Source of the DNA: Eubacteriales bacterium
GTDB taxonomy: Bacteria; Bacillota; Clostridia; Lachnospirales; Lachnospiraceae
DNA length: 34,096 nt
Direction: 5' to 3'
NCBI GenBank assembly: GCA_030536855.1
Contig: JAUNPK010000026.1
Span: 1 to 34,096 of the forward strand
The notes under the pieces were generated by a model that did not search any database, was not told the DNA's origin, and saw nothing but the letters and a program-made list of their open reading frames with translations. A program made the translations under genes and the position numbers. Below, piece by piece: positions 7,783 through 33,499 of the stretch (within the stretch, counting starts at the first letter, position 1; every line of letters begins with the position of its first letter).

Positions 7783-10200
7783 TTAGCTTCTAAGCTCAAT
7801 TCCGGCTTTATTCTTGAGATTCTCTAAGATTGCTGAAACAAAACCTTCCATTGTCTTAGCATTAAGTTCTTCATCTTTAGGTGTGAATACAACCTTAAAT
7901 GCCATACTCTTCTTATCTTGTGAAAGCTGTGCTCCTTCATAGACATCAAAGAGCTTCACATCCGTTACATATTCACAGGCCTCTTTAATTCCATTCTCAA
8001 TGGTTTCACAGGTAATATCCTTATCCACAACGAAAGCAAAATCTCTCTTCTCAACGTCATATTTTGGAAGAGGTGTGTATACTCTCGCCTTACCATACCA
8101 TGCTGAAAGCTCCTTCATATCGATTTCACACACAAATGCAGGCACTCTCATATCAAGTTCATCTGCAATTTCATAACGAAGCTTTCCTAAGTAACCAACC
8201 TTAACACCATCACAGAATATATCTGCTGTCTGATATGGGTGAAGGAATGTCTTCTCTGAAGGTGTATACGTAAATTTAACATCAAGTGCGTCAGCAACTG
8301 TCTCAGCCATGCCCTTAAGGGTAAAGAAATTCTCATTCTCACCAAATATACCTATACAGAGAGTTTCTCTCTCATCCGGATATTCTGTAAGAGGAAGCTC
8401 CTTAGCAATAAATTTATTGCCCAATTCAAAAATTCTTCCCTCTAAAATTGCCTTCTTCTGGTTTCTTGCAATTGCGTAAAGCATCTGTGGAACAAGAGTA
8501 GTTCTCATCAGCGACAAATCTACGTTAATCGGATTAATAAGTGAAATAGCATATCTTTCAGGCGCATCCTCAGGTAACTTTAAAAGATCCAAGTCAGATG
8601 GTGAGAAGAATGAATAATGAATTCCCTCATATGCTCCCTGTCCGCAAAGAGCTTTCTTAATCTTTAACTCAGTCTTCTGACGAAGGTTCATACCGCCTGC
8701 TGTAACCTGTGCTGTCGGCATAAATGTCGGCGTTACATGGTCATAACCATACATACGTATAACTTCTTCGGCTATATCCTGATAGCTCTCCATATCCTCA
8801 CGATATGCAGGCACCATAATTGTAAGCTCATCCCCTTCAATTACAGGCTGGAAATTAAGTGCAGCAAGAATTCTTATAATATCCTCGTCAGGAACCCTGA
8901 TACCAAGTACACTGTTAATCTGAGACACCTTAGCTGTCATCTTAACCGGTTCAAGTGAGTTTCCTGCCGTATCAGATACGTGTGTCTTAGAAACCTTTCC
9001 GGCATTAAGCTCCTCAACAAGATGAAGTGCTCTCTTAAGACCCATTTCAGTATTATACTCATATACACCCTTAGAGTACATTGCACTTGAGTCAGATGAC
9101 TGTCCAAGCGCTCTTGAGCTCTTACGGATGTTATCTCTCGCAAATTTTGCAGATTCAAAAAGGACCTCTGTTGTATCGTCCTTAATCTCAGAATTAAGTC
9201 CACCCATAATACCTGCAAGAGCAACCGGCTTAACACCGTCACAGATTAAAAGATTGGTATCTTTAAGTTCAAATTCCTTCTCATCAAGAGTTACAATCTT
9301 CTCTCCCTTCTTAGCAAGTCTTACATTGATTTCGTTACCCTCAAGATACTTATAATCAAATGCATGCATAGGCTGTCCTATCTCTGTGAGGACATAATTA
9401 GTAATATCAACGATATTGCTGATTGAGTTTATACCAACCAAAGCAAGTCTTCTTCTCATCCATGCAGGCGACTGTTCAATCTTTACATCTGTAACATAGT
9501 GAGCTGTATATCTCGGACAGATGTCCTTAGCCTCAACATTAACCTTAAAATCAATTGACTTATCTGACTCTGTGTAAGTAAGAGATGGTTCTTTACACTC
9601 TTTGCCAAGAACAGCTGCAACCTCTCTTGCAATACCAAGAATACTCTGACAGTCCGGTCTGTTAGCTGTGATTGCAATATCAAAAATCCAGTCATCCATT
9701 CCAAGGATTGGCTTAACGTCCGCACCTGCCTCAGCATCATCAGGAAGCTCCAACAAACCGTTGTAGCCTGCGCCCGGATACAGGTCCTCAGAAAGGCCGA
9801 GCTCCGTACCTGAACAGAGCATACCAAATGAATCATATCCTCTGAGTTTTCCCTGTTTAATCTCCATCACACCCTCAACAGTCACATGGTCTTTAGCAGT
9901 TGCATAAACTGTTGCTCCTATAAGGGCAAGCGGAAACTTCTTACCGACACGTACATTATCTGCTCCGCAGCAAATCTGGAATGTTCCGCAAGATCCGGCA
10001 TTTACCTTACATAAGTGAAGATGAGTATCCGGAATATCCTCACACTCTTCCACTAAACCAACAACAACATTGCTGATATCTTTACCAACCTCTGTCAACT
10101 CCTCAACCTCAAAACCGCATGAGAACAGCTTCTCCTCAAGTTCCTTTGGAGTTACATCTATATCTACATATTCCTTAAGCCAACTAAGTGGTGCTAACAT
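7783..10200 (-). CDS. pheT: Phenylalanyl-tRNA synthetase beta subunit
   Basis: Beta chain of the heterotetrameric class II PheRS. The 805-residue protein has the expected order: N-terminal SWLKEYVDI segment and tRNA-binding OB domain (about 40-150), B3/B4 editing region (about 200-390), B5 domain (about 400-480, with [23 protein letters not shown]), catalytic-like domain, and the C-terminal FDX-ACB domain starting around [26 protein letters not shown] lies 6-7 nt before the ATG. It follows pheS with a 20-nt gap and precedes queA with 14 nt, a common compact arrangement. Length and domains are complete, with no frameshift. Confidence 0.97.
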
Positions 10201-10220
10201 ATTATTATCCCTCCTGATTC

Positions 10221-11246
10221 CTAGTTATCATCTATCTGATCTAACACTCTAAGATCTGATTCAAATAACAGCTTGATGTTATTAATACCGTACTTAAGCA
10301 TTGCAATACGCTCAATACCTATACCAAATGCAAAACCACTGTAAACTTCTGTATCAATATTACATCCCTCAAGGACCTTTTTATTAACAACACCCGCACC
10401 GAGTACTTCAATCCATCCGGTACCCTTACACAGCTTACATCCCTTGCCGCCACACTGGAAACAGCTTACATCAACTTCAACAGATGGTTCTGTAAATGGA
10501 AAGTATGACGGACGAAGTCTTGTTGTAACCTCTTCAGAGAAAATCTTCTTAACAAATACATCAAGCATACCCTTAAGGTCACAAAGTGTAATACCCTTGT
10601 CCACTACAAGACCTTCCATCTGACTAAACATTGGTGAATGAGTAGCATCATCATCTGAACGGAATACCTTACCCGGAGAGATAACCTTAATTGGGAGCTT
10701 ACCTGTTTCCATTACATGAATCTGACCTGCAGATGTCTGTGTACGAAGAAGAAATTCCGGTGAAAGATAGAATGTATCCTGCATATCTCTTGCCGGATGA
10801 TCCTGAGGTGTATTAAGTGCCGTGAAATTATAATGGTCAGTCTCAATCTCTGTTCCTTCATAAATTTCAAATCCCATAGAGCCAAATATATCTATAAGTT
10901 CATTCTTTATCTGAGTGATAGGATGAAGATTTCCTCTGGCTGCCTTTTTTGCGGGCATTGTAACATCAATCTTCTCAGCCTTATATCTTCTTCTTAACTT
11001 CTCAGCCTCAAACATTGCTATTCTTTCTGCAAGAAGGCTTTCTATAGCTTCTCTTGTCTCATTAACAATCTGTCCAACCTTAGGTCTGTCTTCAGGAGCT
11101 ACGTCCTTCATTCCTTTGAGTACCTCTGTAAGTTCACCCTTCTTTCCAAGAAAAGCTACTCTGATATCATTTAATTTTTCCAGAGAATCAGTTTCCTTAA
11201 TCTGAGACAATGCACTATTTTTGATTGCTTCAAGTTTCTCTTTCAT
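10221..11246 (-). CDS. pheS: Phenylalanyl-tRNA synthetase alpha subunit
   Basis: Catalytic alpha chain of PheRS, 341 residues. After an N-terminal coiled-coil arm (about 1-85, [22 protein letters not shown]) the class II core shows [12 protein letters not shown] (motif 2 region), [25 protein letters not shown], and motif 3 as [18 protein letters not shown] cysteine cluster [14 protein letters not shown] sits before the GWIEVLGAG block; this insertion is known in clostridial PheS. The start at 11246 is chosen because GGAGG lies 5 nt upstream; the reading frame is open seven more codons to 11267 but those include the Shine-Dalgarno. It is preceded by a candidate promoter and a short structured leader instead of a T-box. 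Confidence 0.96.
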
Positions 11247-11280
11247 CTTATCCTCCATTCTTCTCACATTCGAGTATATT

Positions 11281-11328
11281 GAAAACTCCCTATCAGGAGT
11301 CCGACTCCTTATTTACGGCTGGAAAGCC
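11281..11328 (-). promoter_or_regulatory. Structured pheS leader, candidate attenuator
   Basis: Three short helices can form in the minus-strand leader: GGCT/AGCC (11328-11317); a 6-bp stem AGGAGT-CGG-ACTCCT (11309-11295); and ACTCC/GGAGT (11300-11285), extendable by G-U pairs and followed by TTTTC. The second and third share the ACTCC segment and so exclude each other, as in an attenuator. The U-run is short. No T-box consensus is present, and the sensed signal, if any, is unknown. Confidence 0.35.
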
Positions 11329-11335
11329 ACATTCA

Positions 11336-11363
11336 ATTGTACCATAAAAGCTGTTTTTATCAA
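11336..11363 (-). promoter_or_regulatory. Candidate sigma-A promoter of pheST
   Basis: On the minus strand TTGATA (11363-11358) and TACAAT (11341-11336) are separated by 16 nt; each matches consensus at 5 of 6 positions. It begins only 17 nt after the stop codon of the upstream membrane-protein gene. The predicted transcript has a leader of about 80 nt. Confidence 0.6.
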
Positions 11364-11379
11364 GCATTTTATTATTTAC

Positions 11380-12969
11380 TCACAATACATGCTTCTTCTC
11401 GTACATCTCGATTACCTTTAATGCTTCATTGGTATACTCAGGATTACTTTTTGTTATATTCTTTATGTTCTCCTTTGCTTCCTGTATTCTTCCCTCATTA
11501 TATTCAATCTGATTTCTCAGTTTTTGTCTTCTCACCGTGAGACTATGACGAACTTCAACCATTTCTTTTGGATTATATAAAGCTCTGGTCTGTCCTATCC
11601 ATATATGAGGGTCATATAAACCAAGTTTTTTAAGTTTTTCCTGAAGCTGCACCTCAGCACTGTTAAGACTGGATGTCATCTCAAGTAGTTTCTGCTGTTC
11701 CATCTTCATTTCCACATACATCTGGTATTTTTTTTCAAGTTCGTAGGAACTCTTTACGCCATACTTGTTATATTCGTAATCCAGTACATTTGCCGCATTT
11801 ACATATTTTATTTTCATTTTATTAAGCAGGGAGGTTGCTTTGTTAAGTTTCACTTCAGTTACGTATACTTTACGTTCCGTAGTCTTTAACATAGCCAGCA
11901 GTCCCAACGCCATAACCCCGGCAAGAATTGATACAGTTATAAACATACCAAGATAGTCATTCTCCGGTGCTGCTGCAGAAATCATTAAAAATAATACAAA
12001 TATAAATCCAAGAAATACTATTGCTGCTAATGAATATTTTCTTATCTTTAACTGTCTTCTTACTAGCTCCTTTGACTCTATTCTATGGCTCATTCTCTCC
12101 CCTTCAAGCATTCTCATGTCACGGGAAACTGCTTCATAGTATTCTTCCTGATGTCTTAGGAACTTAATTCCCTTAGGAAGTTCATCTTCGTACATTTCCA
12201 TACGTCTGTAGGTATTATTGGACAGCTTATTATCGGTAGATTTAAAAATTCTTCTGTCAACAGCAAGATTATCCACCATCTCTGCATAAGTACGAATCTG
12301 CTCTCTTATGTCATCAGGCGCTTCCTCTATAATCTGTATATCATTGAAATAATCGGACACACTCTCGTATTCCGCTTTTGCATTTTCAATATACTCCGAC
12401 GCTTCCTCCATAATATCGCACTGCTCTTTAACATATTTTTCGATATCATAAGTCTTGAATCCGTCTGTGTTAACTCTGTCCAGCTTTTTAGGTTTTCTTG
12501 TTATATCCGGAAGTACTATATTAATCTTATCTTGGTTATCATTAATTGTGTCTTTTGCTTTGGATTTCTCTGATGCCTTTTTTACTTTCCTGTTATTTTC
12601 AGGTGATTCCTGTGAATTAAATTTATCAACAGTTTTAATGAGATCCTGAGCCTGGACACTGTTAAGAAGGTGATCGTATCGTGCCTCTTCATCAGAAACC
12701 TGTTTCTGTCTCTTTTTTGTATTTTCATCCAGTCCGTTGAAATCACCTTTTTCTTCTGACTTCCCGTCAATTGCAAATCCTTCAAAAAGACTACTTATAT
12801 CAAGCTGTTCCGTTTTATCATTGCTGCTTTGTAATGTATTAGTAAATGTAATCTCATCATCAGATTCATCTGTCAATTCTATCTGTTCATCATCATAAAC
12901 AAGATCCTCCAGATTCTCCAGGTCATAGTCCTCTTCATAACCTTTCTTAAAGAATTCAAAAAGCCCCAA
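11380..12969 (-). CDS. Membrane-anchored coiled-coil protein of unknown function, TTG start
   Basis: I do not recognise the family. The 529-residue protein starts MGLFEFFKKGYEEDYDLE and has a strongly acidic, low-complexity N-terminal region (1-110), a lysine-rich linker (about 125-165), a helical domain (about 175-310), two adjacent transmembrane helices (about 313-334 and 339-361, separated by AAPENDY), and a C-terminal coiled coil (about 362-520, with KMKIKYVNAANVLDYEYNKYG and EMKMEQQKLLEM). The hairpin topology would leave both long ends in the cytoplasm. The start is a TTG at 12969, with AGGAGG at 12977-12982 seven nt upstream; an upstream in-frame TTG at 12987 precedes that site and is unlikely. 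It is the last gene of the rarA-led run, 33 nt after the TPR gene, and probably anchors the other products at the membrane (inference). Confidence 0.82.
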   Translation of the reverse strand: MGLFEFFKKGYEEDYDLENLEDLVYDDEQIELTDESDDEITFTNTLQSSNDKTEQLDISSLFEGFAIDGKSEEKGDFNGLDENTKKRQKQVSDEEARYDHLLNSVQAQDLIKTVDKFNSQESPENNRKVKKASEKSKAKDTINDNQDKINIVLPDITRKPKKLDRVNTDGFKTYDIEKYVKEQCDIMEEASEYIENAKAEYESVSDYFNDIQIIEEAPDDIREQIRTYAEMVDNLAVDRRIFKSTDNKLSNNTYRRMEMYEDELPKGIKFLRHQEEYYEAVSRDMRMLEGERMSHRIESKELVRRQLKIRKYSLAAIVFLGFIFVLFLMISAAAPENDYLGMFITVSILAGVMALGLLAMLKTTERKVYVTEVKLNKATSLLNKMKIKYVNAANVLDYEYNKYGVKSSYELEKKYQMYVEMKMEQQKLLEMTSSLNSAEVQLQEKLKKLGLYDPHIWIGQTRALYNPKEMVEVRHSLTVRRQKLRNQIEYNEGRIQEAKENIKNITKSNPEYTNEALKVIEMYEKKHVL

Positions 12970-13002
12970 AATCTCACCTCCTGACAATTAATTATTATTT
13001 TA

Positions 13003-13833
13003 CTATCTTGAACCATCTGTATATTTAAAATAACTCTTTTTCCATCTCTCGATAACTTCTTCAATCGCCTTATGATATGCGGCCACATTTCCATCAGATC
13101 TAAGCGAATCTATATCTTCAAGTTCCCTGTATTCATCCTGATATCTTGCATTATCCATAAGTGTTTCTATCTCTCTCCTGAGCACATATTCATCCTCAGA
13201 TACATCCTCGTTGACCGGACCTTCATTTCTTTCTGCAAACCAGTCTGCTGCCATATAACACTTCTTGGATTCCTCATGCTGTCCGATTTTATAAGCAGTC
13301 TTAAAACACTGTGATGCCTCTTTATATAAAAACATTCTTGCAAAGGCAACTCCCGCATTATGAAATACTCCCGCAAGGAAAATTCCCGACAGATCATTTC
13401 CCTTATACTCATCAATAATCTGCATATAACATTTAATTGCATTATAAAAACAATGATTGTACAAGTAACTGTCGCCCCTTGTTTTCAGCCTCTCATACAT
13501 ATTCTGACTGTTCAGTGTATTAAGTATTTCTCTTATCTGTTCAATTTCCGCTATGGAATAATAATCAACAGATTTGAGTATTGTTACAACAATTTCAGCT
13601 AACCCCGCATTTTTCTCACGTAAGAATTCAATTCGCTCTGCCAGCTGATTTTCCTCAACCTCATCTTTTAAAAACATAATAAGATTCTCATTTATAAAAT
13701 CGTTTCCAATAAGATATATGTTGTTGTAAATATAATAGCAAAGCTCTTCAACCGTATATATACTGATCCCTGCGTGATGAATCTTAAGTGGATGCTTAGC
13801 TTCTTTACTCCTGCACAATATCATTGAGCCCAT
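13003..13833 (-). CDS. TPR-like helical protein of unknown function
   Basis: A 276-residue soluble protein with no signal peptide. The N-terminal part (MGSMILCRSKEAKHP, then IYTVEELCYYIYNNIYLIG, residues 26-44) is a short helical domain that I recall from Lachnospiraceae hypothetical proteins. Residues about 115-205 form two or three tetratricopeptide-like repeats: GDSYLYNHCFYNAIKCYMQI and NAGVAFARMFLYKEASQCFK show the A/G-x-Y spacing of TPR helices. The C-terminus (about 210-276) is charged and helical. AGAGG lies about 7-8 nt before the ATG. It starts 12 nt after the Hsp70-like gene and ends 33 nt before the membrane-protein gene. A TPR adaptor beside an Hsp70-fold protein suggests a co-chaperone or scaffold role, but this is inference from context. 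Confidence 0.82.
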   Translation of the reverse strand: MGSMILCRSKEAKHPLKIHHAGISIYTVEELCYYIYNNIYLIGNDFINENLIMFLKDEVEENQLAERIEFLREKNAGLAEIVVTILKSVDYYSIAEIEQIREILNTLNSQNMYERLKTRGDSYLYNHCFYNAIKCYMQIIDEYKGNDLSGIFLAGVFHNAGVAFARMFLYKEASQCFKTAYKIGQHEESKKCYMAADWFAERNEGPVNEDVSEDEYVLRREIETLMDNARYQDEYRELEDIDSLRSDGNVAAYHKAIEEVIERWKKSYFKYTDGSR

Positions 13834-13845
13834 ATATAATACCTC

Positions 13846-15009
13846 TTAAACACTAAATTCCAGTTCCTTATAAATAACTTTTCCTGAACTCTTAAAGAAA
13901 TCTCCAAATCCTTTATCTTTTATTGTTATCAGACATCTGTCTTCTCCAACAAATTTTACATTCATTGATATTCTTGTTGTTTTCCCTTCCCTGTAAGGTA
14001 TCTCGCTTATGTCTATTACCTCATCAGAAAATTTTCCATCAGGTGTTACAATCTTTAAAGTTATAAATCTTACATCATCAAGTAAAAAGTCCACTGTCCT
14101 TTCAGCCATAAACCAGTTAAAACCAGGTTTTAGGATTCTAAATCTCATAAGCTGTCCCCGTTCGCTGATATCTGTCTCTATTCCTACCTTAATTCTTCCG
14201 GACACAAGCAATACACATCTGTCAAAAAGTCTTGGTCTTACCTGCTCCAATGCTGCAAAACATGCACCTCTTACAAAAAGATTCTGGCCCATAAATGCCT
14301 TTTTTCTGTTAACGATAATTTTTGTAAAATTCTCCGGCAATTTGTCCGTATTAAATCCCTTTCCTGTAAGATACACCGCAGAAGCCATATGTTTTCCAAA
14401 ATACCCTTCCGTAAAGGAACATAACTCCGAAGAAATATCTTCAAGGTTAGCTTCACCATTCAAAACATTCATAAGTTTATCCGAGGAAAAACTTTCCTGT
14501 TCCTCTATTATGTAATCCTCTCCATCCTTTTTCTTTGCAGTAAGTCGATGAATATCAATACCGTCTTTATCATAATCCATAAGGACAACACCGGCTGCAT
14601 ACAATTCCTTTCGCTGGCTGTAAGCATAATAGGCAAAGCTCTCAGTCTTACCTATTATCTGCCACCGATTACTCTTTACAGGTATCTTTCTTATAGCAGA
14701 TTTAATAATAGACAAACCGTCATAATCATTGACTTTGGTGACGATACAGACTGCATCTATGACATTACATTCCATCTGCCTGAAAGACTCACTGATACAC
14801 AGACTAATTAAAGATACAACTCCGTCTACATCTGCTTCGTGTTCACCATCTTTACCTAACAGTTCTGACAAACTTCGTTGATTATCATAAACAGGTTTAT
14901 TCGGAATCAATTCAATTGTCTTAGGTATGTCTTTATTAAAATCATAAGCACACACCTGGGTAGTATTTTCATTTAATTCAATACCTATTACAAGTCCTTT
15001 ATCACTCAT
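13846..15009 (-). CDS. Divergent Hsp70/actin-fold protein (DUF5716-like), probably degenerate ATPase
   Basis: The 387-residue product resembles a shortened Hsp70. Recognisable counterparts are: phosphate-1 region VIGIELNENTTQV (7-19; compare IIGIDLGTTNS); connect-1 GKTESFAYYAYSQ (120-132; compare NEPTAAALAYG); phosphate-2 region VVLMDYDKDGIDIHRL (141-156; compare DLGGGTFDVSIL); adenosine region AVYLTGKGF (211-219); GACFAAL (248-254; compare GAAxxxG). Residues about 272-387 look like a substrate-domain beta sandwich, with KVGIETD and RCLITIKDKGFGDF. The glycine-rich phosphate-2 loop is not conserved, so ATP hydrolysis is doubtful. I recall such proteins as DUF5716, to be verified. The ATG at 15009 has AGGGA 9 nt upstream; the TTG at 15015 is too close to it. 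It lies 14 nt after the large scaffold gene. Confidence 0.8.
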   Translation of the reverse strand: MSDKGLVIGIELNENTTQVCAYDFNKDIPKTIELIPNKPVYDNQRSLSELLGKDGEHEADVDGVVSLISLCISESFRQMECNVIDAVCIVTKVNDYDGLSIIKSAIRKIPVKSNRWQIIGKTESFAYYAYSQRKELYAAGVVLMDYDKDGIDIHRLTAKKKDGEDYIIEEQESFSSDKLMNVLNGEANLEDISSELCSFTEGYFGKHMASAVYLTGKGFNTDKLPENFTKIIVNRKKAFMGQNLFVRGACFAALEQVRPRLFDRCVLLVSGRIKVGIETDISERGQLMRFRILKPGFNWFMAERTVDFLLDDVRFITLKIVTPDGKFSDEVIDISEIPYREGKTTRISMNVKFVGEDRCLITIKDKGFGDFFKSSGKVIYKELEFSV

Positions 15010-15023
15010 GTTCAAATATCCCT

Positions 15024-18000
15024 CTATCCCTTCATCGGTTTGAACAACTGCTTGGTTACATAGTCCTCAACTACATATCCATGCATTACTTTCTTTAATG
15101 TAACCATATCGTGCAGTTCCACACAGGCAAGACAATCATTAATAGCATCATATCTTCCCTCCGTACACTCCGAATTAAAATCATCGCATACGAGATTATA
15201 GACTTCACTTTCCGTAACATATTCATTATCATTTTCCGTAATATAATATTTAATCCTGTCGTTGTAGAACAGATTAACTCTAAAGGTAAATATTCCACAT
15301 CGGTCACATTTCATAACCTTCTCAGTATATTCCTCAGAATCTGTATCGTAGGTATAATGTATTGTCACCTTGCTATCCGGGTCTGCAAAATACTGAATCA
15401 CGGTAGTTCCCAACACGTTATAAGGAATAACAAGAACGCCCTTAAACTCTTTGTAAAATTCATATATTATGTCCTGTTTACACAGTGATGTAAATAATTT
15501 CTGAACCATGGGAAGCTTGTCCGATTTTTTCAATTCTCCGGCTTTCTTTGATAACTCCTTAAGCCATGCTACAAAGCATATCTGCGGCAATCCCATTTCC
15601 TCTTCAAATGCTTCCTCTATCACACTGAAAACAATATCATTGGCTTTTTTCTGCTTAACAAGATATAGAAAGGCATTATAAGATGCATAAGCTTTGACTA
15701 TGACATTACGCGCACCTTTCCTGTAATAATCAGTAAAAACTTCCGTAAGTCTTCCTGTATGCTTGCCCGTAAAAATCATCTGTGCAATAACTCTCTCAGA
15801 AAGAGAATCCACATTCATACCAAAGTTGATACTTGCTTTCCACACGTCATACATCTCATCATTAGTACCGTTAAAATATTTAATCATATAAGATAATACA
15901 TTTTCATTGTAAAGATGATTGCTGAATGCACATTTTGCAAGCTGGTTCTTTTCTTCACTGTAGTCATCGGAATACTCCAGCTGATGAACCAGTAGTTTAA
16001 ATACATTTGAGGGCGAAATATAAGAAAACCCATATTTTTCCATAAGTTCATAGCTATCCATATACATTCCGTAATCTATAAGGAGTTCTATAAGCTTTGA
16101 ACTTGAAGATATATCAAGATTATCTCTTAAAATCCATGTGTATTCATGCTTAAAACTATCTCCGGGATAATACTCACTGTAATAATCAATCATCCATGAG
16201 TTTAGAGTTTCTCTGTATTGTTTTGTAATTCCCTCTATTCTTCCTGCCCTCTTATACACGTTGAGGGTATTAGAATCAAATACCTTGGCTGTTCTTAAAT
16301 AATTAGCTTTATATATAAGTATAAAATCATTATTTATATTGTATTCGGCAAATTCTTTAAGTCCATCCGGCTCTCCAAAGGCTTTTTCAATCTCGTAATT
16401 TATGCTGCTTTTTCTTGTAACTCCATCTTTGCAAATAAATGTAAGGGCACAATCGGAAGTATACATCGGAATATATGTAACTTTATCAACAACATCATAT
16501 ATTTCCGGTTTTCCTTTTTCTCCATACTTTACAAGAATCTTATCAACCACATCATCAAAACACGTAACTCTGTACATAAATCTTAACTTTGACATAAACT
16601 CTGCCGTCTCGTCACGTAACAGTTCCGGTTTTAAGAACTCCCTGTAAAGCATTGCAAGATTATCATCAACATTGCCTTCCCTAAGCTGTTCATAAACATA
16701 CATTTCCATGTTCTTTTCGTATGAATTGTATACGTCACGGTATTCTTTTTTATTATGAAGAACATTGGCATAAAGAAAAGCCTTATATGCATAATCAAGC
16801 TGATTATCATAGGCAAAATACATCAACACCATTTTAGGTAGAAGAATGGTAACATCCTTCTGTATACTCGCTATATAAAATTCATACAGCTTAGTTATTC
16901 TAAGTCCACGAAGAATTCCCTTTTCATACAGCGATGCAGCAGACTGGTCTATAACACCCGCTTTAATCATACTGGAAATGCAAACTCCCAATAATTCATC
17001 TTTGTCAAATTGATTATACAAATCCTTAAGTATATCAATATACTCATAGGATATAACTTTATCATTACTGATAACTTCTCCAATCTGCATGGCGAATTTT
17101 TCGTTAATCAGCTTATGACGGCAGCCGAATTTTATTACCTGTATTTCAAATCTGTTTAGAACCCTTAACAGGTTAGGCTGGACATTATATATATTAAGGG
17201 CTTCAAGATACATAACAGGACTTGTACAGCCATCATTATATGCATCCTTAATTCTTATTATCTTAATACTTTTATTGTGATCTACTTCTGCATTGAGATA
17301 AAAAAGTATCCACAAAATCCTCCATGTGTCATAACCGTTTTCAAAGTATTTTGTGACAATTTTAATTACTTCTTCGGTGTATTGTTCATTTTTCTGTGCC
17401 AGGGTATTGACATAAAGGTAAAAGCAATATAATTCCACATTTTCTTCAATGTTCTCCATAATATTGCCTTTTATATTATCAAGAATCCACTGTCCGTCTT
17501 CATCTCTGCCTGAAATAAAGTTAATCTGAGCATGAGCAAGGTCAAAAAATGTAGACCCTGCCCCTTCTATGCCTCTGACTCTTTTTAATATCTGGTCCGA
17601 ATGTGAAATCCATGTCTCTTTCTTTGTTTTCTTCATTCTGAAATCAAGATACTCTTTAGTGAGGCTGACCACAGCATTTTTAACTTCACGTTCTATTCTT
17701 ATATCTTTCTGAGTTATTCCATCAGATAGCACGTTATCTACCACAATATCAAGATATTCTATATGATTATATGAGCTTACTGAAATTCTTCCGAAATTCT
17801 TTCCTGCATGAAGTTTTTCTGCGTCAATAATATACTCAAGTTCGTATATATCCCCTGTAAACTCATCTGAAGTTATTACTCTATTGGATATGTCTATAAA
17901 ATTTGCGTCAGTATCTACATTAAGCGAAATATAACCCCAGCCATTTTTCTCAATTACAATGGAATCTTTTTCATTGGAACCTGTTTCATCGTATACCCTT

Positions 18001-18590
18001 ATACTATCCCTTAACTTAAAAGTTACAGCGGATTTCTTCTTAATGGCGATAAGAAATTCCTCCATTGATTCATATATGTGTTGTTCATCGTACAGGGCAT
18101 CATATAGATTAATAAGTGATTTATCATCATTTAAAAAAATTCTTTTAAAATCCGGAGAAGTATATATGCTTTCAGCTTCTTCTCTTGATGTCTGAACAAG
18201 ATTGGTAAAATGAAAAAGATTATATGCTTTTCCTACAGAAGTCTCCACGCTTTCCGGAACTACCGTAAATACATACGGAATTTCTTTTTCTCCTCCGCTG
18301 CTTATAATGCAAAAGGTCCCCTCTATCTGCTCCTTAACTCCAAGTTCCCTGGCATCAACCGAAAATCTGATATCGCAATCTGCTCCCATAAAGCCGTTAT
18401 CTTTTATAACAATTCTGCTGTCAGAAGCATATACTACACCCTTTATAACGTCAGTGGCATGAATATGAAACGACAACTCATTAATCTTTCCCTTTATCAC
18501 ATCCAAGTTAACAGACTCCACGGGCTGTGTTATCTTAGGACACTCATATACAAATTTTCCTATTGCAAGTCTGTTAATATACTCTCTCAT
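15024..18590 (-). CDS. Very large beta/helical-repeat protein of unknown function (DUF5717-like)
   Basis: A 1188-residue protein without signal peptide or membrane segment. Residues 1-115 look like an all-beta domain with an Ig-like end (GTFCIISSGGEKEIPYVFTV), and a second similar beta domain spans about 200-290 (GWGYISLNVDT, FGRISVSSYNHIEYLDIVV). From about 300 to 1020 it is almost entirely helical with tyrosine-rich, TPR/HEAT-like periodicity. The last 150 residues return to beta structure and include a CDRC pair (1095-1098) and a conserved-looking MHGYVVEDYVTKQLFKP tail. I believe this is the Lachnospiraceae family annotated DUF5717; that is memory, not a search. GGAGG lies 10 nt before the ATG. 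It starts 18 nt after the rarA stop and is followed 14 nt later by the Hsp70-like gene, so all five are probably one transcript. Confidence 0.82.
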   Translation of the reverse strand: MREYINRLAIGKFVYECPKITQPVESVNLDVIKGKINELSFHIHATDVIKGVVYASDSRIVIKDNGFMGADCDIRFSVDARELGVKEQIEGTFCIISSGGEKEIPYVFTVVPESVETSVGKAYNLFHFTNLVQTSREEAESIYTSPDFKRIFLNDDKSLINLYDALYDEQHIYESMEEFLIAIKKKSAVTFKLRDSIRVYDETGSNEKDSIVIEKNGWGYISLNVDTDANFIDISNRVITSDEFTGDIYELEYIIDAEKLHAGKNFGRISVSSYNHIEYLDIVVDNVLSDGITQKDIRIEREVKNAVVSLTKEYLDFRMKKTKKETWISHSDQILKRVRGIEGAGSTFFDLAHAQINFISGRDEDGQWILDNIKGNIMENIEENVELYCFYLYVNTLAQKNEQYTEEVIKIVTKYFENGYDTWRILWILFYLNAEVDHNKSIKIIRIKDAYNDGCTSPVMYLEALNIYNVQPNLLRVLNRFEIQVIKFGCRHKLINEKFAMQIGEVISNDKVISYEYIDILKDLYNQFDKDELLGVCISSMIKAGVIDQSAASLYEKGILRGLRITKLYEFYIASIQKDVTILLPKMVLMYFAYDNQLDYAYKAFLYANVLHNKKEYRDVYNSYEKNMEMYVYEQLREGNVDDNLAMLYREFLKPELLRDETAEFMSKLRFMYRVTCFDDVVDKILVKYGEKGKPEIYDVVDKVTYIPMYTSDCALTFICKDGVTRKSSINYEIEKAFGEPDGLKEFAEYNINNDFILIYKANYLRTAKVFDSNTLNVYKRAGRIEGITKQYRETLNSWMIDYYSEYYPGDSFKHEYTWILRDNLDISSSSKLIELLIDYGMYMDSYELMEKYGFSYISPSNVFKLLVHQLEYSDDYSEEKNQLAKCAFSNHLYNENVLSYMIKYFNGTNDEMYDVWKASINFGMNVDSLSERVIAQMIFTGKHTGRLTEVFTDYYRKGARNVIVKAYASYNAFLYLVKQKKANDIVFSVIEEAFEEEMGLPQICFVAWLKELSKKAGELKKSDKLPMVQKLFTSLCKQDIIYEFYKEFKGVLVIPYNVLGTTVIQYFADPDSKVTIHYTYDTDSEEYTEKVMKCDRCGIFTFRVNLFYNDRIKYYITENDNEYVTESEVYNLVCDDFNSECTEGRYDAINDCLACVELHDMVTLKKVMHGYVVEDYVTKQLFKPMKG

Positions 18591-18608
18591 TAGTTAAAAG
18601 CCTCCAGT

Positions 18609-19925
18609 TTAGCCTTTGATTTCTCTAAAATGTTCCTTAATCTTTTTCTCATATCCCATATCAGATGGTTCATAAAATACTTCCCCCACAAGGGAATCCG
18701 GCAGATATTGCTGTTCAACATAATGATTAGGATAATCATGAGCATATTTATACCCTATTCCATGACCTAATTTTGCTGAATCCTTATAATGGGCATCCAT
18801 AAGATGCACAGGAACATTATCTGTCTTTCTCTTTTCCACAATCTCCATAGCTTTATCTATGGCACATATACATGAATTACTTTTAGGCGCACAGGCAACA
18901 TACAATGCTGCCTGGGAAAGAATAATCCGTGCTTCCGGCATGCCTATCCTTTCCACTGCCATGGCTGCACTTGTGGCTACCACAAGTGCGTTGGGATCTG
19001 CATTACCCACATCCTCACTTGCACATATCATAATCCTTCTTGCTATAAATTTAATATCTTCCCCTGCATACAGCATCTTGGCCAGATAATAACTTACAGC
19101 ATCAGGGTCAGAGCCTCTCATACTTTTTATAAAGGCAGATATTGTATCGTAGTGGTTATCACCCTGTTTATCATATCTTAAAGCTCTTTTCTGTATACAC
19201 TGCTCTGCCGTCTTTAAATCTATATGTATAATACCGTCTTCGCTTCTGTCAGTAGTAAGAACACCCAGTTCAACAGCATTAAGAGCATTTCTTGCATCAC
19301 CATTAGATATATCCGCAAGAAAATCCAGAGCTTCTTCATCTATGGCTGCATTATAGCTTCCCATGCCCTTCTTTTCATCATACACAGCACGCTTTATTAT
19401 TTCTTTTATATCATCTTTAGAAAGGGGTCTTAATTCAAATATTACAGACCTTGAAATCAAAGCCTTATTAACCTCAAAATATGGATTTTCTGTTGTAGCT
19501 CCAATAAGAATTATTGTTCCATCCTCAACAAATGGCAGAAGATAATCCTGTTGCCCTTTATTAAATCTATGAATTTCATCTACAAATAATATGGTCTTTC
19601 TTCCATACATACCAAGATTATTCTTGGCTTTCTCAACCACATCCTCCATATCCTTCTTACCTGCTACCGTAGCATTAATCTGGCAAAAATCAGCGCTTGT
19701 GGTATTTGCAATCACCTTTGCCAGTGTTGTCTTACCGGTTCCCGGTGGTCCGTAAAATATAACCGAACTTATCTTATCAGCCTTAATAGCTCTGTATAAA
19801 AGCTTATCCTTGCCAACTATATGCTGCTGTCCAACTATTTCTTCCAAAGTCTCCGGACGAAGTCTCATAGCCAGAGGTGACTCATTATTTTTATTATTTT
19901 CTCTCATGTACTCAAATAAATCCAT
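18609..19925 (-). CDS. rarA: Replication-associated recombination protein RarA (MgsA), AAA+ ATPase
   Basis: Clamp-loader-like AAA+ ATPase that acts at stalled replication forks. The 438-residue protein has PLAMRLRPETLEEIVGQQHI at its start, Walker A GPPGTGKT at 59-66, Walker B ILFVDEIH at 112-119, sensor-1 IGATTENPYF, an SRS arginine-finger region (SRSVIFELRPL) and the RarA-type C-terminal domain (KSMRGSDPDAVSYYLAKML, DVGNADPNAL). The ATG at 19925 is used because GGAGG is 5 nt upstream; the ten further upstream codons in frame overlap it. A candidate promoter lies at 19974-20002. It is the first gene of a run with four proteins of unknown function, a linkage that may be functional or merely positional. 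Confidence 0.96.
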   Translation of the reverse strand: MDLFEYMRENNKNNESPLAMRLRPETLEEIVGQQHIVGKDKLLYRAIKADKISSVIFYGPPGTGKTTLAKVIANTTSADFCQINATVAGKKDMEDVVEKAKNNLGMYGRKTILFVDEIHRFNKGQQDYLLPFVEDGTIILIGATTENPYFEVNKALISRSVIFELRPLSKDDIKEIIKRAVYDEKKGMGSYNAAIDEEALDFLADISNGDARNALNAVELGVLTTDRSEDGIIHIDLKTAEQCIQKRALRYDKQGDNHYDTISAFIKSMRGSDPDAVSYYLAKMLYAGEDIKFIARRIMICASEDVGNADPNALVVATSAAMAVERIGMPEARIILSQAALYVACAPKSNSCICAIDKAMEIVEKRKTDNVPVHLMDAHYKDSAKLGHGIGYKYAHDYPNHYVEQQYLPDSLVGEVFYEPSDMGYEKKIKEHFREIKG

Positions 19926-19973
19926 AACAGCCTCCACTTTAGTAAGCCTTTGCAAATTGGCAATACACTAGAT

Positions 19974-20002
19974 ATGATAGCATATTTCCCGTTGAATGAC
20001 AC
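19974..20002 (-). promoter_or_regulatory. Candidate promoter of the rarA-led operon
   Basis: On the minus strand GTGTCA (20002-19997, 4 of 6 to consensus) and TATCAT (19979-19974, 5 of 6) are separated by 17 nt, within the 81-nt gap between dacF and rarA. No damage-inducible operator of the GAAC-N4-GTTC type is visible. Confidence 0.4.
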
Positions 20003-20006
20003 TACT

Positions 20007-21188
20007 TTAATTCAAGAACTTCCACATTATTTTTTTCAAAGCATCACCAAAATTCATCTTATCCACATTTTTACCTGCTACAATATCTATGGTTCCAATA
20101 AGTGTGTCCTTATAGTAGTAATTCAACATTCCCACACTATCTCCTCCTTTTACAGGAACCTTTATATCTTTATTCAAAATCAACTCCTTACGTATATCCT
20201 CCTCACTGTAACGATTAAGGAACAGGTAAGAAAATGTATCTTTTTTTACTATAGGCAAGCTGCTTTCTTTTCCGCCTTTTATAGCAACAGGTTCGTAACT
20301 TTCTTCCTGATTATCCACGTATATGTTACAACTACTGAAACCGTAATTAAGAAGGGTAACAGCATCAGAAAATCTTGTCTTACTGTTGGGAGCTGCCATT
20401 ACAACTGCCACAAGTTCAATCCCATCCTTTTCAGCCGTAGCAGAAAGACAACAGCCCGCCTTACTTGTTGATCCGGTCTTTAAACCTGTTGCATAGGAAT
20501 ACTGCTTAATCAGCTTATTGGTATTGGATAATGTAAATTCCGACTCTCCCTTTCTTGTAACATGGGTTATGGTATCCATCCAGATATTGGAATAATCCTT
20601 TATTTGAGGATGTTTTGTTATAAGTTCCCTGCTCATAAGTGCAACATCCAGAGCACTTGATGTATGACCTTCATCATCCAGACCGCAACAATTTACAAAA
20701 TGTGTATTATTCATGCCAAGCTCTTTAGCTTTTTCATTCATTTGTCCCACAAACACATCCTCCGAGCCACATATATGCTCGGCCATGGCTACACAGGCAT
20801 CATTGGCACTTGCAACAGTTATACATTTTATCATTGTATTTACCGTCTGCTTTTCCCCAACTTCAAGAAACACCTGACTACCTCCCATACCGGCAGCATG
20901 TTCGGATACTGTCACTTCATCCTCCAGTGATATTCTTCCATCTTCTAATGCCTCAAATATAAGATTCAAAGTCATTATTTTTGTAATACTGGCAGGAGCA
21001 AGTGACTCATTTGCATTTTTTTCATAAATAATCTGTCCCGTACGAGATTCCATAAGTATGGCTGAAGGGGTCACTATTTCCGGTCCCGACTTATCATTAT
21101 CCTCCCCATATACAGTTTTAGCTGCCATCACAATTGTGACGGCAGCTATTATAATAAACTGCATAAATCTAATTTTTGTACGCCCCAT
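20007..21188 (-). CDS. dacF: D-alanyl-D-alanine carboxypeptidase, DacF type
   Basis: Serine-type penicillin-binding D,D-carboxypeptidase (peptidase family S11) that trims the terminal D-Ala of peptidoglycan stems outside the membrane. The 393-residue precursor has a signal peptide (hydrophobic about 9-27, likely cut near VYG-ED), the active-site SITK at 67-70, SAN at 127-129 and KTGS at 237-240. A C-terminal beta domain ends in an amphipathic helix (GDALKKIMWKFLN) that usually anchors such enzymes to the membrane surface. GGAGG is 5 nt before the ATG. In Bacillus, dacF is a forespore gene; I do not find a convincing sigma-F promoter in the 90 nt upstream, so a housekeeping DacA/DacB-like role is equally possible. 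The symbol is a family label. Confidence 0.88.
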   Translation of the reverse strand: MGRTKIRFMQFIIIAAVTIVMAAKTVYGEDNDKSGPEIVTPSAILMESRTGQIIYEKNANESLAPASITKIMTLNLIFEALEDGRISLEDEVTVSEHAAGMGGSQVFLEVGEKQTVNTMIKCITVASANDACVAMAEHICGSEDVFVGQMNEKAKELGMNNTHFVNCCGLDDEGHTSSALDVALMSRELITKHPQIKDYSNIWMDTITHVTRKGESEFTLSNTNKLIKQYSYATGLKTGSTSKAGCCLSATAEKDGIELVAVVMAAPNSKTRFSDAVTLLNYGFSSCNIYVDNQEESYEPVAIKGGKESSLPIVKKDTFSYLFLNRYSEEDIRKELILNKDIKVPVKGGDSVGMLNYYYKDTLIGTIDIVAGKNVDKMNFGDALKKIMWKFLN

Positions 21189-21278
21189 AATAACCTCCGT
21201 TTATACGCACATCATCGTACACATTATCCGTATTCTACGTAGTTATTAATATATATGTGAGCCTTTAAAAATGTATAA

Positions 21279-21485
21279 CTATATTCTTACTTTATATTTT
21301 CTTTTAAATACCTCATCCACAACGCATCCCATGAGTACAGAATTAAATGCCCATAATGTTACTATTGCCAACACAGGTATATTCAATGGATTGATTCCAA
21401 AAACAAAATAAAAAACCGCTTCAACTTCCAATCCTAATACTGCGCTTATAATGATTCCTGCAATTCTTAACTGTATTTTTTTCAT
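21279..21485 (-). CDS. Small two-helix membrane protein, unknown function
   Basis: A 68-residue protein starting MKKIQLRIAG, with two predicted transmembrane helices (about 7-30 and 36-58) joined by the turn FGINPLN, and a positively charged tail (FKRKYKVRI), which would place both ends in the cytoplasm. No family recognised. The ATG at 21485 has GGAGG 5 nt upstream; four more in-frame codons to 21497 overlap the Shine-Dalgarno. It stands alone, 90 nt before dacF and 162 nt after the zinc-ribbon gene. That upstream gap contains a CATCAC/GTGATG inverted repeat around 21516-21541 but no clear promoter. The strong ribosome site and membrane composition make a real gene likely. Confidence 0.65.
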   Translation of the reverse strand: MKKIQLRIAGIIISAVLGLEVEAVFYFVFGINPLNIPVLAIVTLWAFNSVLMGCVVDEVFKRKYKVRI

Positions 21486-21647
21486 ATTATCCTCCATTCC
21501 GCAGAACCATCACCTTCGTTCTTATGTGTGATGTTTCCAACAAAAATTTTATTTTCTGTTTCCTTGAATGAATGAATAATACCAAATAAAAAGAGTAATA
21601 AATTACACAGTTTCCAAGCCACCCGAGGTATTGTTACTGCTGCTGGG

Positions 21648-23258
21648 TTATTTCAGCTCTGTACCAAGCCACATCCGTTCTACTGTTCCGATTGAATTTC
21701 CGCTCTTTCCTTTGAGGTTACAACTGCGGAGCTCATTATTAGCATCATAAAAATATAATTTATTTTTATAATAACAGGTATCTGATGTACTTGAAACACT
21801 GCCTATATTGTACATAAGAACCGGTTTTGATGCGGATGTCTTTAAATAATATTGACATCCGTCCTTAATATAAGTAAGGGATTTTTCTGTGTTATTTATA
21901 AGCGAAAGGGTTCCATCAGAAACTCCTTCCATAAGCATTTTAGATGTTCCCTTTAACAACTCTTTAAGCTGTCCTTCTCCGTTAATATACACAAGTTCAC
22001 CTGATGATTTATCAAACACATAATTGTTCTGTGAGCCTATACTGTCTACGGTGCTGTACTGCCCGAATCTTTCTCCATCATAGGCTGATACCATAATATT
22101 CCCGTTGTTAATCATATACATACAGGAATTTTTCTTATCATATACATAAATTATTCCGGAACTTAAGGCACCACTTACCCTTATACTTTCTTCCTTTTTG
22201 ATGTTGACCAGAAAGCATCCCGAATCTGAAGTGTACATATAAGAATCTGCGTTATCAGATGAATTTATGTGTTCCACTGATGTACCGTATACATAATCAT
22301 AATCAGAACTCATAACATATAAATTGCCAATATTTACATCTATTAAATCCTTTTTCTTTTTATCAAAATCGTACCGGTAAAGATTACTGTTGTTATCAAG
22401 AAATACAATTGAAGCTGATTTACTATAAACATAGGCATTCTTCAGGTCACTTTCAATAGTAACCGAATTGGCAGCAAGTTTTTTATCCCCTTTTGAAGAT
22501 GATTTTTTAACTTCTGTCATTCCTAAAGAGGTGGAACCAACTGTTCCCTCTTCATTAATTACCTGAATTTCTTTATAAATCAACTGCCCTTTATCTGTAA
22601 GACAGTATATTTCGTGAGCATTAAAATTGTTCAATGCGTCAACCACGTTGCCTTCCTCATCCCACACATAAAGAGAGTATATCTCAGAATCACTATCATA
22701 AACATCCGCAGCAAAATATTTACCGCTGTCACTGGCAAGGGTAGAAACAATATTTCCACTTCTTACTTCCAACGGCCTGTCCGGTGTGTAAAATGTAGCA
22801 TAATCCGAGGCAAATATTGCATCTGACTGTTCACACACGAATTTACTTTCCAAACCTGTAACATTATATATTTTACCGTTACTTCTCATAAAAAGCTCAT
22901 AATTTTTTTTAGTAGAAAGCTTATATATCCCCAGAGATGCAAGTCCTGCAAGGACCAAAACCAAGGCGACAACTATATACTTCACACCTTTTTTATTTGT
23001 ATTTTTTAACTTAGGTTTCTTTAATGACTTCAAGGAATTTATTATATTAAGAAAAATGCTTTTCATTTTCCCGGAGGATTTTTTCTTTGTCTTTCCGGGT
23101 TCTTTTTCTTTGTCTTTTTCAGCATTTTCCCTGACCTTCTTTTCCTCATAAGCCTTACGTCTTGCAAGATAGTCATTGTTATTAACCAAAATTACCGGTC
23201 CGTCACACTTCGGGCAACGACTACCTTCATACTCTGTTTTACATTTTGTACACAGCAT
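21648..23258 (-). CDS. Zinc-ribbon, single-pass membrane protein with propeller-like outer domain
   Basis: I do not recognise a named family. The 536-residue protein opens with a zinc ribbon (C3, C6, C15, C18: CTKC and CPKC), followed by a very basic, charged linker (about 35-90, rich in KEK/KKK), one transmembrane helix (about 92-113, YIVVALVLVLAGLASLGIY), and a 420-residue extracytoplasmic part. That part is beta-rich with many short repeats of the form YVYDKKNSCMYMINNG and LYRYDFDKKKKDL, suggesting a beta-propeller or stacked WD-like sheets. The topology (cytoplasmic zinc ribbon, outside propeller) resembles Firmicute envelope sensors, but no catalytic motif is seen. AGGAG is 6 nt before the ATG. 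An 84-nt folded element directly precedes the gene. Confidence 0.82.
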   Translation of the reverse strand: MLCTKCKTEYEGSRCPKCDGPVILVNNNDYLARRKAYEEKKVRENAEKDKEKEPGKTKKKSSGKMKSIFLNIINSLKSLKKPKLKNTNKKGVKYIVVALVLVLAGLASLGIYKLSTKKNYELFMRSNGKIYNVTGLESKFVCEQSDAIFASDYATFYTPDRPLEVRSGNIVSTLASDSGKYFAADVYDSDSEIYSLYVWDEEGNVVDALNNFNAHEIYCLTDKGQLIYKEIQVINEEGTVGSTSLGMTEVKKSSSKGDKKLAANSVTIESDLKNAYVYSKSASIVFLDNNSNLYRYDFDKKKKDLIDVNIGNLYVMSSDYDYVYGTSVEHINSSDNADSYMYTSDSGCFLVNIKKEESIRVSGALSSGIIYVYDKKNSCMYMINNGNIMVSAYDGERFGQYSTVDSIGSQNNYVFDKSSGELVYINGEGQLKELLKGTSKMLMEGVSDGTLSLINNTEKSLTYIKDGCQYYLKTSASKPVLMYNIGSVSSTSDTCYYKNKLYFYDANNELRSCNLKGKSGNSIGTVERMWLGTELK

Positions 23259-33337: not shown

Positions 33338-33414
33338 AATCTTTCAATAACTCCAATCAATATATTAAAGTTTACCTTGTTGCATATCTGTTACACATTT
33401 ACTGCACAAATAAC

Positions 33415-33450: not shown

Positions 33451-33499
33451 AATTATTCTTAAATGTTTATGCTTTAAACTTCCCTATGGAATTTAGATT

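What the first reader, a model, noticed from the sequence alone, without database searches (positions are those of the whole stretch)
11380..19925. Undescribed five-gene unit: rarA plus scaffold, Hsp70-like, TPR and membrane coiled-coil proteins
Seen: five co-oriented genes with gaps of 18, 14, 12 and 33 nt, each with its own Shine-Dalgarno, no internal terminator, a candidate promoter before rarA, and a new promoter (pheS) starting 17 nt after the last stop. Known: TPR proteins commonly partner Hsp70s; two-TM coiled-coil proteins can anchor cytosolic complexes. Inferred: the four unknown products form a membrane-tethered assembly with a chaperone- or cytoskeleton-like core. I recall the families from Lachnospiraceae only, which would make it a lineage-specific cell-biology module.
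Basis: partly seen in the sequence, partly recalled or inferred. Interest (0 to 1): 0.8.

Follow-up and report, generated by a model that had tools for sequence, protein, structure and literature searches.

The report
Leftover scaffold of multi-Hsp70 machine
Four uncharacterised neighbouring genes in a family of gut bacteria look like what is left of a larger chaperone-type gene set that related bacteria still carry, which gives these widely kept but unexplained genes a first testable role.

Summary
The five genes, gaps and Shine-Dalgarno sites are as described. rarA is only a neighbour: directly upstream in 13 of 80 named loci and in 0 of 50 regions from other families. The real unit is DUF5717–DUF5716–TPR–coiled-coil (CC), in that order in 65 of 80 named loci. 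DUF5717 occurs in 117 of 120 Lachnospiraceae genomes.

In other families of the order, DUF5717 heads a larger operon: HspA–GrpE-like–HspB–HspC–Hsp70-VWA–TPR, sometimes with CC. Twenty-four of 50 regions hold the whole run; none shows another order, though 11 hold only DUF5717. DUF5716 is a degraded HspB, an Hsp70 (E 2.6e-53). GrpE-like and TPR co-occur with DUF5717 even where unlinked. GrpE-like (22 genomes) and Hsp70-VWA (120 genomes) were not found in Lachnospiraceae, whose nearest DUF5717 lineage keeps the larger set.

Best reading: Lachnospiraceae kept the scaffold, pseudo-Hsp70, TPR adaptor and, mostly, the membrane protein, and lost the ATPase half. The history is well supported; the mechanism is inferred, since structure prediction was off. 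CC is the loosest member. The papers searched do not describe it.

The parts
15024..18590 (-). DUF5717 protein, 1188 aa (PF18984 + PF18983), predicted scaffold; fused form of what is mostly two genes (about 400 + 900 aa) in other families of the order
13846..15009 (-). DUF5716 protein, 387 aa (PF18980): degenerate Hsp70, counterpart by position and profile of HspB in the larger operon; most ATP-site residues lost
13003..13833 (-). TPR protein, 276 aa; matches the first half of the longer TPR protein that ends the larger operon
11380..12969 (-). Coiled-coil protein with two central membrane segments, 529 aa; last gene of the set, loosest member, also found elsewhere without the set
18609..19925 (-). 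rarA (recombination factor): neighbour, not a member of the conserved set
11336..11363 (-). promoter-like site before pheS (consensus match only)
19974..20002 (-). promoter-like site before rarA (consensus match only)

Best explanation
The conserved unit is DUF5717–DUF5716–TPR–CC, without rarA. It is the Lachnospiraceae remainder of a dedicated multi-Hsp70 system. The fuller operon in related families is DUF5717 (one or two genes)–HspA–GrpE-like–HspB–HspC–HspV (Hsp70 fused to a VWA domain)–TPR, with CC at the end in some lineages. Shown by sequence: DUF5716 is HspB with its ATP site degraded further; HspA and HspV keep the ATP-site residues tabulated; HspC keeps all but the lysine; GrpE-like carries a GrpE domain at its C-terminus; TPR and GrpE-like co-occur with DUF5717 even where not linked; GrpE-like and HspV were not found in the Lachnospiraceae sampled. 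Inferred: in the full system the Hsp70s run an ATP cycle reset by the GrpE-like factor, on clients or partners held by the DUF5717 solenoid and passed through the TPR adaptor, at the membrane. In Lachnospiraceae the ATPase half was lost and the rest works as an ATP-independent, membrane-tethered scaffold or holdase in which DUF5716 binds partners through its substrate-binding-like half; canonical DnaK, GrpE and DnaJ may supply any ATP-driven step.
For: Order: 24 of 50 regions outside the family hold the whole run DUF5717–HspA–GrpE-like–HspB–HspC–HspV–TPR (HspC of four of them found by tblastn); none of the 50 shows the co-oriented genes in another order, though 11 hold only DUF5717 and so do not test it. 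The same genes minus the ATPase half lie in the same order in 65 of 80 named loci. Co-occurrence in the 174 non-Lachnospiraceae genomes of the order: DUF5717 with TPR 65 both, 7 DUF5717 alone, 1 TPR alone, 101 neither; with GrpE-like 68, 4, 1, 101. Homology: DUF5716 profile against HspB profile 100% probability, E 2.6e-53, 425 columns; HspB profile against solved DnaK E 1.6e-23 over both domains. GrpE PF01025 at the C-terminus, E 1.4e-14. ATP-site residues. Loss: GrpE-like in 0 of 22 Lachnospiraceae at real scores, HspV in 0 of 120 (best 325 bits, against 985 or more for full-length HspV, the latter scored with a single sequence). Conservation: DUF5717 in 117 of 120 Lachnospiraceae, TPR in 22 of 22. 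Direction: the Lachnospiraceae DUF5717 rows form one clade (99/92) next to a lineage (100/99) with the larger operon including CC.
Against: No interaction, structure or phenotype was tested. CC was not found in 5 of 22 Lachnospiraceae, occurs without the set in 41 genomes and often lies near an unrelated gene family, so its membership may be loose. DUF5717 has no solved relative, so its scaffold role rests on size and weak TPR-like hits (4 of 40 members). HspA and HspC absence was not tested across Lachnospiraceae (HspA only in the window's genome). The tree root is a midpoint, so loss rather than gain is the simpler reading, not proof. In part of one family the operon is dispersed, so a tight complex is not required. 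DUF5716 still keeps some ATP-site positions (the first-loop aspartate in 93 of 103, one adenosine-loop glycine in 103 of 103), so residual nucleotide binding is not excluded. Four near-complete genomes of one genus (g259, family f138) have weak DUF5717 and strong GrpE-like hits but no specific TPR hit.
Confidence: 0.6

Rival explanations
1. Actin-like or cytoskeletal assembly: the Hsp70 fold is an actin-type fold (recalled), and the Hsp70s with a pseudo-Hsp70, a giant solenoid and membrane coiled-coils could build a membrane-attached filament or cell-shape scaffold rather than handle clients.
For: HspA, HspC and HspV also match the MreB model (E 8e-8 to 2e-18); coiled-coil membrane proteins at one or both ends of the operon.
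Against: HspA, HspC and HspV match the Hsp70 model far better and through its substrate-binding part, HspB matches DnaK structures over both domains, and a GrpE domain is present.
Confidence: 0.15
2. Conflict or defence system: a variant of the GTPase-associated HSP70/GrpE gene neighbourhoods described by Kaur and colleagues (PMC7159879), guarding against phage.
For: That paper describes neighbourhoods with HSP70, GrpE, a second HSP70 without peptide-binding domain, and FNIII proteins fused to TPR or DnaJ, near the membrane. HspA, HspC and HspV hit one PADLOC candidate model (E 2e-8 to 4e-5).
Against: No GTPase or GAP1 match among ten operon proteins or ten flanking proteins from five regions, which are ordinary metabolic and transport genes; near-universal rather than patchy (117 of 120); the PADLOC hits cover the Hsp70 domain only, and the four window proteins gave nothing but one weak repeat hit (E 0.009); the phage-record hits look like bacterial chromosome pieces.
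Confidence: 0.07
3. The functional core is three genes (DUF5717, DUF5716, TPR); CC is a separate, perhaps older membrane protein that the set has merely come to adjoin.
For: CC was found in 41 of 102 genomes outside the family that lack DUF5717, was not found in 5 of 22 Lachnospiraceae, and in 12 of 16 CC regions shares the region with one protein family, identified in the one tested as valyl-tRNA synthetase.
Against: CC follows TPR in 65 of 80 named loci, ends the operon in lineages f4 and f7, and lies beside TPR in four f138 genomes by coordinates.
Confidence: 0.3
4. The first reader's five-gene unit including rarA, a recombination-linked chaperone module.
For: rarA is in the region in 11 of 14 Lachnospira relatives and directly upstream in 13 of 80 named loci.
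Against: Not directly upstream in the other 67 named loci, some of them cut by contig ends, and in none of the 50 regions outside the family.
Confidence: 0.03

Closest known systems
Hsp70 (DnaK) with its exchange factor GrpE
   Same: HspA, HspC and HspV match PF00012 and GrpE-like matches PF01025; HspA and HspV keep the ATP-site residues.
   Different: Several Hsp70 paralogues in one operon, one fused to VWA, one degenerate; the GrpE domain sits at the end of a long protein; no J-domain match in the ten operon proteins scanned; the window's version keeps only the degenerate Hsp70.
GAP1-N2 GTPase-centric systems, HSP70/GrpE theme (Kaur et al. 2020, PMC7159879; section 29 and eight passages read)
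   Same: HSP70 plus GrpE, a second reduced HSP70, TPR, membrane association.
   Different: No GTPase or GAP1 found in operon or scanned flanks; fixed gene order; near-universal in Lachnospiraceae.
DnaK paralogue pairs, as in Myxococcus (PMC11019930; eight passages read)
   Same: Extra Hsp70 with a nucleotide exchange factor gene next to it.
   Different: There two DnaKs; here an operon of four Hsp70-type proteins with scaffold, TPR and membrane proteins.

Membership tests
Hsp70 family (for DUF5716) | Nucleotide-binding plus substrate-binding beta domain homology | tested here: met
   Full-length profile match to HspB, which matches DnaK structures over both domains and PF00012
Hsp70 family (for DUF5716) | ATP-binding and hydrolysis residues (phosphate loops, Lys70, Glu171, Thr199 of DnaK) | tested here: not met
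   In 103 DUF5716 sequences the commonest letters at Thr11, Lys70, Glu171 and Thr199 differ from DnaK's; Asp8 is kept in 93 and one adenosine-loop Gly in 103 (alignment approximate). A degenerate relative, not shown to be a working ATPase
Hsp70 family (for HspA, HspV) | ATP-site residues intact | tested here: met
   HspA 40 of 40 and HspV 27 of 27 at the 13 positions tabulated, except Lys70 in HspA (36 Lys, 4 Arg)
Hsp70 family (for HspC) | ATP-site residues intact | tested here: not met
   12 of 13 tabulated positions intact in 29 of 29; Lys70 is Y, F, H or W in 29 of 29
Hsp70 family (for HspA, HspB, HspC) | C-terminal helical lid | tested here: inconclusive
   The proteins end soon after the region matched to the beta domain; no structure available
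GrpE family (for GrpE-like) | GrpE domain | tested here: met
   PF01025 E 1.4e-14 and 3.8e-14 at the C-terminus of the two members scanned
GrpE family (for GrpE-like) | Exchange activity on its Hsp70 | not testable with these tools
   Needs biochemistry
GAP1-N2 HSP70/GrpE conflict systems | GTPase and GAP1 component in the neighbourhood | tested here: not met
   No such Pfam match among ten operon proteins or ten flanking proteins of five regions; the other regions' flanks were not scanned
GAP1-N2 HSP70/GrpE conflict systems | FNIII-repeat protein fused to TPR or DnaJ | tested here: inconclusive
   DUF5717 shows weak TPR hits in 4 of 40 members; FNIII is not among the 25 of 32 weak families listed; no structure
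Hsp70 system with J-protein | J-domain partner in the operon | tested here: not met
   No DnaJ-domain match among the ten operon proteins scanned

The most novel reading that the evidence does not exclude
A dedicated nine-gene Hsp70 machine exists in many families related to Lachnospiraceae: three largely intact Hsp70s (one carrying a VWA domain), a pseudo-Hsp70, an exchange factor with a GrpE domain, a giant scaffold, a TPR adaptor and membrane anchors acting as one membrane-associated complex. Lachnospiraceae dropped its ATPase half and turned the pseudo-Hsp70 scaffold into a core, family-wide cell component with an ATP-independent job.
Probability: 0.5. Interest if true: 0.85.

Novelty: new variant of a known kind. 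Interest (0 to 1): 0.7.

Why it matters
Lachnospiraceae are abundant gut bacteria (recalled). DUF5717 is present in 116 of 119 sampled genera of the family, and I found no function for it in print. Tying DUF5716 and DUF5717 to a multi-Hsp70 operon gives a first mechanistic handle. The contrast between the full and the reduced version is a natural experiment on what an Hsp70 complex can do without its ATPases.

Tried and rejected
Comparing DUF5716 directly with HspA gave a weaker, N-terminal match (93% probability); HspB is the bridge. The upstream membrane coiled-coil family of other families (20 of the 36 co-oriented, unlabelled upstream genes examined) is not related to CC by profile (probability 1.1%). 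Solved structures: only one weak cross-hit for DUF5717 (E 0.068, an antibody chain), generic TPR for the TPR protein, coiled-coil and membrane cross-hits for CC. Rfam: nothing in 9900-21700. Plasmids: no DUF5717; HspV only cross-hits covering under 80% (167 records). Phage records: four DUF5717 hits; all four also carry DUF5716, three carry rarA, three carry TPR and CC, and all are 'UNVERIFIED' human faecal scaffolds, so I read them as bacterial fragments. One (L271) also has a 562 aa gene labelled HspV at E below 1e-5, score not printed, not followed up. Papers: DUF5716 in one unrelated paper (listing only); DUF5717, PF18980, PF18983 and PF18984 in none; two searches gave nothing; one search gave Kaur et al. 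and PMC8195603 (the latter listing only); one search gave PMC11019930; one search gave 13 papers, of which the 12 listed looked unrelated by title except Kaur et al. Only openly licensed PMC papers were searched.

Counting rules. TPR was called present at E below 1e-27 and GrpE-like below 1e-30, both at natural gaps in the lists; weaker hits are generic TPR or canonical GrpE. The lists behind one search were copied by hand; one weak CC hit (G398, E 7e-4) was left out. Gene calls were my own longest-ORF calls, which miss some genes (HspC in four regions was recovered by tblastn). The 80 named loci are the best 80 of 422; their titles are mostly Lachnospiraceae or its genera, some are vague or look mis-titled, and several are cut by contig ends. 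Of 46 regions L105-L150 two stubs of 100 bases (L141, L142) were dropped. The tree used 48 chosen rows.
Full report
OBSERVATION. The five genes are where the finding puts them, on the minus strand, with gaps of 18, 14, 12 and 33 nt and a Shine-Dalgarno-like site before each. The terminator and promoter scans are at chance level overall: no terminator-like site lies in the gaps, and the two promoters are only plausible. Pfam names the first unknown gene DUF5717 (PF18984 and PF18983), the second DUF5716 (PF18980), finds weak TPR signal in the third and nothing above cut-off in the fourth; NCBIfam has no match for these four.

NAMES. The window's genus looks like Lachnospira: two same-genus genomes have contigs of exactly the lengths of the Lachnospira multipara records (G001 and NZ_JNKW01000016, 41091 bases; G003 and NZ_AUJG01000001, 553257 bases). 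I therefore call family f1 Lachnospiraceae; that assignment, and the order being Lachnospirales, is recalled taxonomy.

RARA IS A NEIGHBOUR. In 14 regions of Lachnospira relatives pheS is present in 14 and rarA in 11. In the 80 named loci, rarA is directly upstream in 13; some of the rest are cut by contig ends. In 50 regions from other families it is never the neighbour; one region has a weak, distant rarA-like hit on the other strand. The block itself is stable: DUF5716, TPR and CC are the next three genes after DUF5717 in 65 of 80 named loci. In the 14 Lachnospira regions, TPR was not called in two and CC not in one.

HOW WIDE. DUF5717 was found in 117 of 120 Lachnospiraceae genomes, 116 of 119 genera. 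The misses are one genome 67% complete and two at 93% and 98%. In the order, 94 of 196 genomes have it: 22 of 22 Lachnospiraceae and 72 of 174 others. TPR was found specifically in 22 of 22 Lachnospiraceae, CC in 17 of 22. In 299 genomes drawn across the phylum DUF5717 had five matches, four Lachnospiraceae (the window's genome among them) and one weak (E 5.8e-5); CC matched the same four only; the GrpE-like profile matched three genomes weakly, over its GrpE part. That phylum sample held only one genome of the order outside the family, so it speaks for confinement to the order, not about spread within it.

THE LARGER OPERON. Outside Lachnospiraceae DUF5717 is mostly two genes, about 400 and 900 aa. 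Next to it lie a canonical-looking Hsp70 (HspA, about 559 aa), a protein of mostly 560-645 aa ending in a GrpE domain (GrpE-like), a degenerate Hsp70 (HspB, about 520 aa, hit by both HSP70 and DUF5716 models over overlapping residues), a third Hsp70 (HspC), an Hsp70 fused to a VWA domain (HspV), a TPR protein, and in some lineages CC. Twenty-four of 50 regions hold the run from DUF5717 to TPR. In one of these (L143) the N-terminal DUF5717 gene lies on another contig, and in the four f138 regions DUF5717 is a single gene of 931-1006 aa matched mainly at its C-terminus. In 21 of the 24 there is no unassigned co-oriented ORF of 70 aa or more inside the run; L129, L136 and L147 have one to two, of 76-246 aa. 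None of the 50 shows the co-oriented genes in another order; 11 hold only DUF5717, the others are shorter runs, several ending at contig ends. Regions from lineage f7 (L044, L111) have all nine genes including CC. A further membrane coiled-coil family lies just upstream in 20 of the 36 regions where an unlabelled co-oriented gene precedes DUF5717, all 20 outside Lachnospiraceae. Ten flanking proteins from five full regions are ordinary metabolic or transport proteins.

CO-OCCURRENCE WITHOUT LINKAGE. In part of family f5 the operon has come apart: DUF5717 stands without the Hsp70s in regions such as L126, L138 and L150. In nine regions around unlinked GrpE-like genes, HspB follows GrpE-like in 9, HspA precedes it in 4, HspC is in 3 and HspV in 1. 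Over the 174 non-Lachnospiraceae genomes, DUF5717 and TPR agree in 166 (65 both, 101 neither) and DUF5717 and GrpE-like in 169 (68 both, 101 neither); Fisher p is below 1e-37 in each case, though related genomes are not independent. The TPR exceptions are four near-complete genomes of one f138 genus with weak DUF5717 hits, and four genomes 58-80% complete; the GrpE-like exceptions are G330 (96% complete) and four genomes 58-86% complete. CC agrees less: 64 both, 61 neither, 41 CC alone, 8 DUF5717 alone. In 12 of 16 CC regions examined (five of the 16 from genomes that have DUF5717) one protein family recurs; it is valyl-tRNA synthetase in the one tested (L242), and the gene after CC in one named locus (L158) is valyl-tRNA synthetase too.

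DUF5716 IS A DEGENERATE HSP70. The DUF5716 profile from 32 sequences matches the HspB profile over 425 columns at 100% probability, E 2.6e-53, with 12% identity. HspB in turn matches solved DnaK chains over both domains at E 1.6e-23. At 13 ATP-site positions, HspA (40 sequences) and HspV (27) keep the DnaK residues, apart from 4 HspA with Arg for Lys70; HspC (29) keeps all except Lys70, which is Tyr, Phe, His or Trp; HspB (35) and DUF5716 (103) have mostly lost the first-loop threonines, the lysine, the glutamate and Thr199, while the first-loop aspartate (34 of 35 and 93 of 103) and an adenosine-loop glycine (35 of 35 and 103 of 103) remain. The alignment is approximate for HspB and DUF5716. 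That Lys70 matters for hydrolysis is recalled.

WHAT LACHNOSPIRACEAE LOST. GrpE-like: 15 of 22 Lachnospiraceae have no hit and 7 only weak ones (E 3e-6 or weaker). HspV: at E 1e-60 109 of 120 have hits, none above 325 bits and all but one of those listed ending by model position 499 of 692 (one at 531), so the DnaK-type part; full-length HspV genes score 985 or more with a single-sequence query, a different but comparable scale. In the window's own genome an HspA search finds only two matches, both DnaK-like at 35-36% identity. HspA and HspC were not sought across the family; none was labelled in the stretch printed for the named loci (two genes before DUF5717 to five after). In a tree of the C-terminal part of DUF5717, 18 Lachnospiraceae rows form one clade (99/92), and the nearest row (100/99) is lineage f4, whose region carries the larger operon ending in CC, with HspV and TPR apparently broken in that assembly. 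Loss in Lachnospiraceae is the simplest reading; the root is a midpoint only.

HOW IT PROBABLY WORKS. Inference from here. The full operon has the parts of an Hsp70 cycle: apparently ATP-competent Hsp70s, an exchange factor, a TPR adaptor, plus a large scaffold and membrane proteins, but no J-protein among those scanned. The simplest role is a membrane-associated chaperone or assembly machine for a particular client. In Lachnospiraceae the parts that would need ATP are gone and DUF5717 is near-universal, so the rest should have a function that does not need them: holding or positioning a client or complex at the membrane, with DUF5716 as a non-cycling binding module. A dnaJ and the end of a dnaK lie in the window itself, and contig C41 starts with the rest of a dnaK after what reads like grpE (by eye). 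DUF5717 as scaffold rests on its size, weak TPR hits in 4 of 40 members and its constant presence.

KNOWN SYSTEMS. The nearest described theme is the HSP70/GrpE group of GAP1-N2 GTPase systems (PMC7159879, section 29 read). Its GTPase and GAP1 parts were not found in the proteins scanned, and the system here is near-universal in its family rather than accessory. DnaK paralogue pairs (PMC11019930, passages read) are simpler. In the library searched, no paper holds DUF5717, and the one that holds DUF5716 is unrelated (listing only).

VERDICT. The evolutionary statement I hold at about 0.9, the mechanism at about 0.4, combined 0.6.

Noticed in passing
window 32216-34096: The window's end carries dnaJ and the 3' part of an Hsp70 gene (Pfam); the start of contig C41 of the same genome (L055) carries the 5' part of a dnaK after what reads like grpE. 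The canonical heat-shock operon probably spans the two contigs, with dnaJ about 14 kb upstream of DUF5717 on the same strand.
   Followed up: partly
L054 (G000:C30) 88-1833: A second DnaK-like Hsp70 (581 aa) in the window's genome apart from the one split over two contigs; same-genus genome G013 also has two Hsp70 matches.
   Followed up: no
L113:15831-17150 and 19 similar genes: A membrane coiled-coil family directly upstream of DUF5717 in several families outside Lachnospiraceae; it may be a further member of the full system.
   Followed up: partly
L268-L271 (MT837190, MT835486, MT835988, MT835719): Four 'Bacteriophage sp.' records from human faeces carry DUF5717 and DUF5716 (three with rarA, three with TPR and CC), so they look like mislabelled Lachnospiraceae chromosome pieces.
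   Followed up: yes
L043 / L057 / L265 (lineage f4): HspV and TPR appear split into two frames each in the lineage closest to Lachnospiraceae, which may be assembly error or decay in progress.
   Followed up: no
window 21648-23258: A 536 aa protein without a Pfam match at E 1e-5 lies just upstream of dacA; genes of similar size and position recur in several Lachnospira regions.
   Followed up: no
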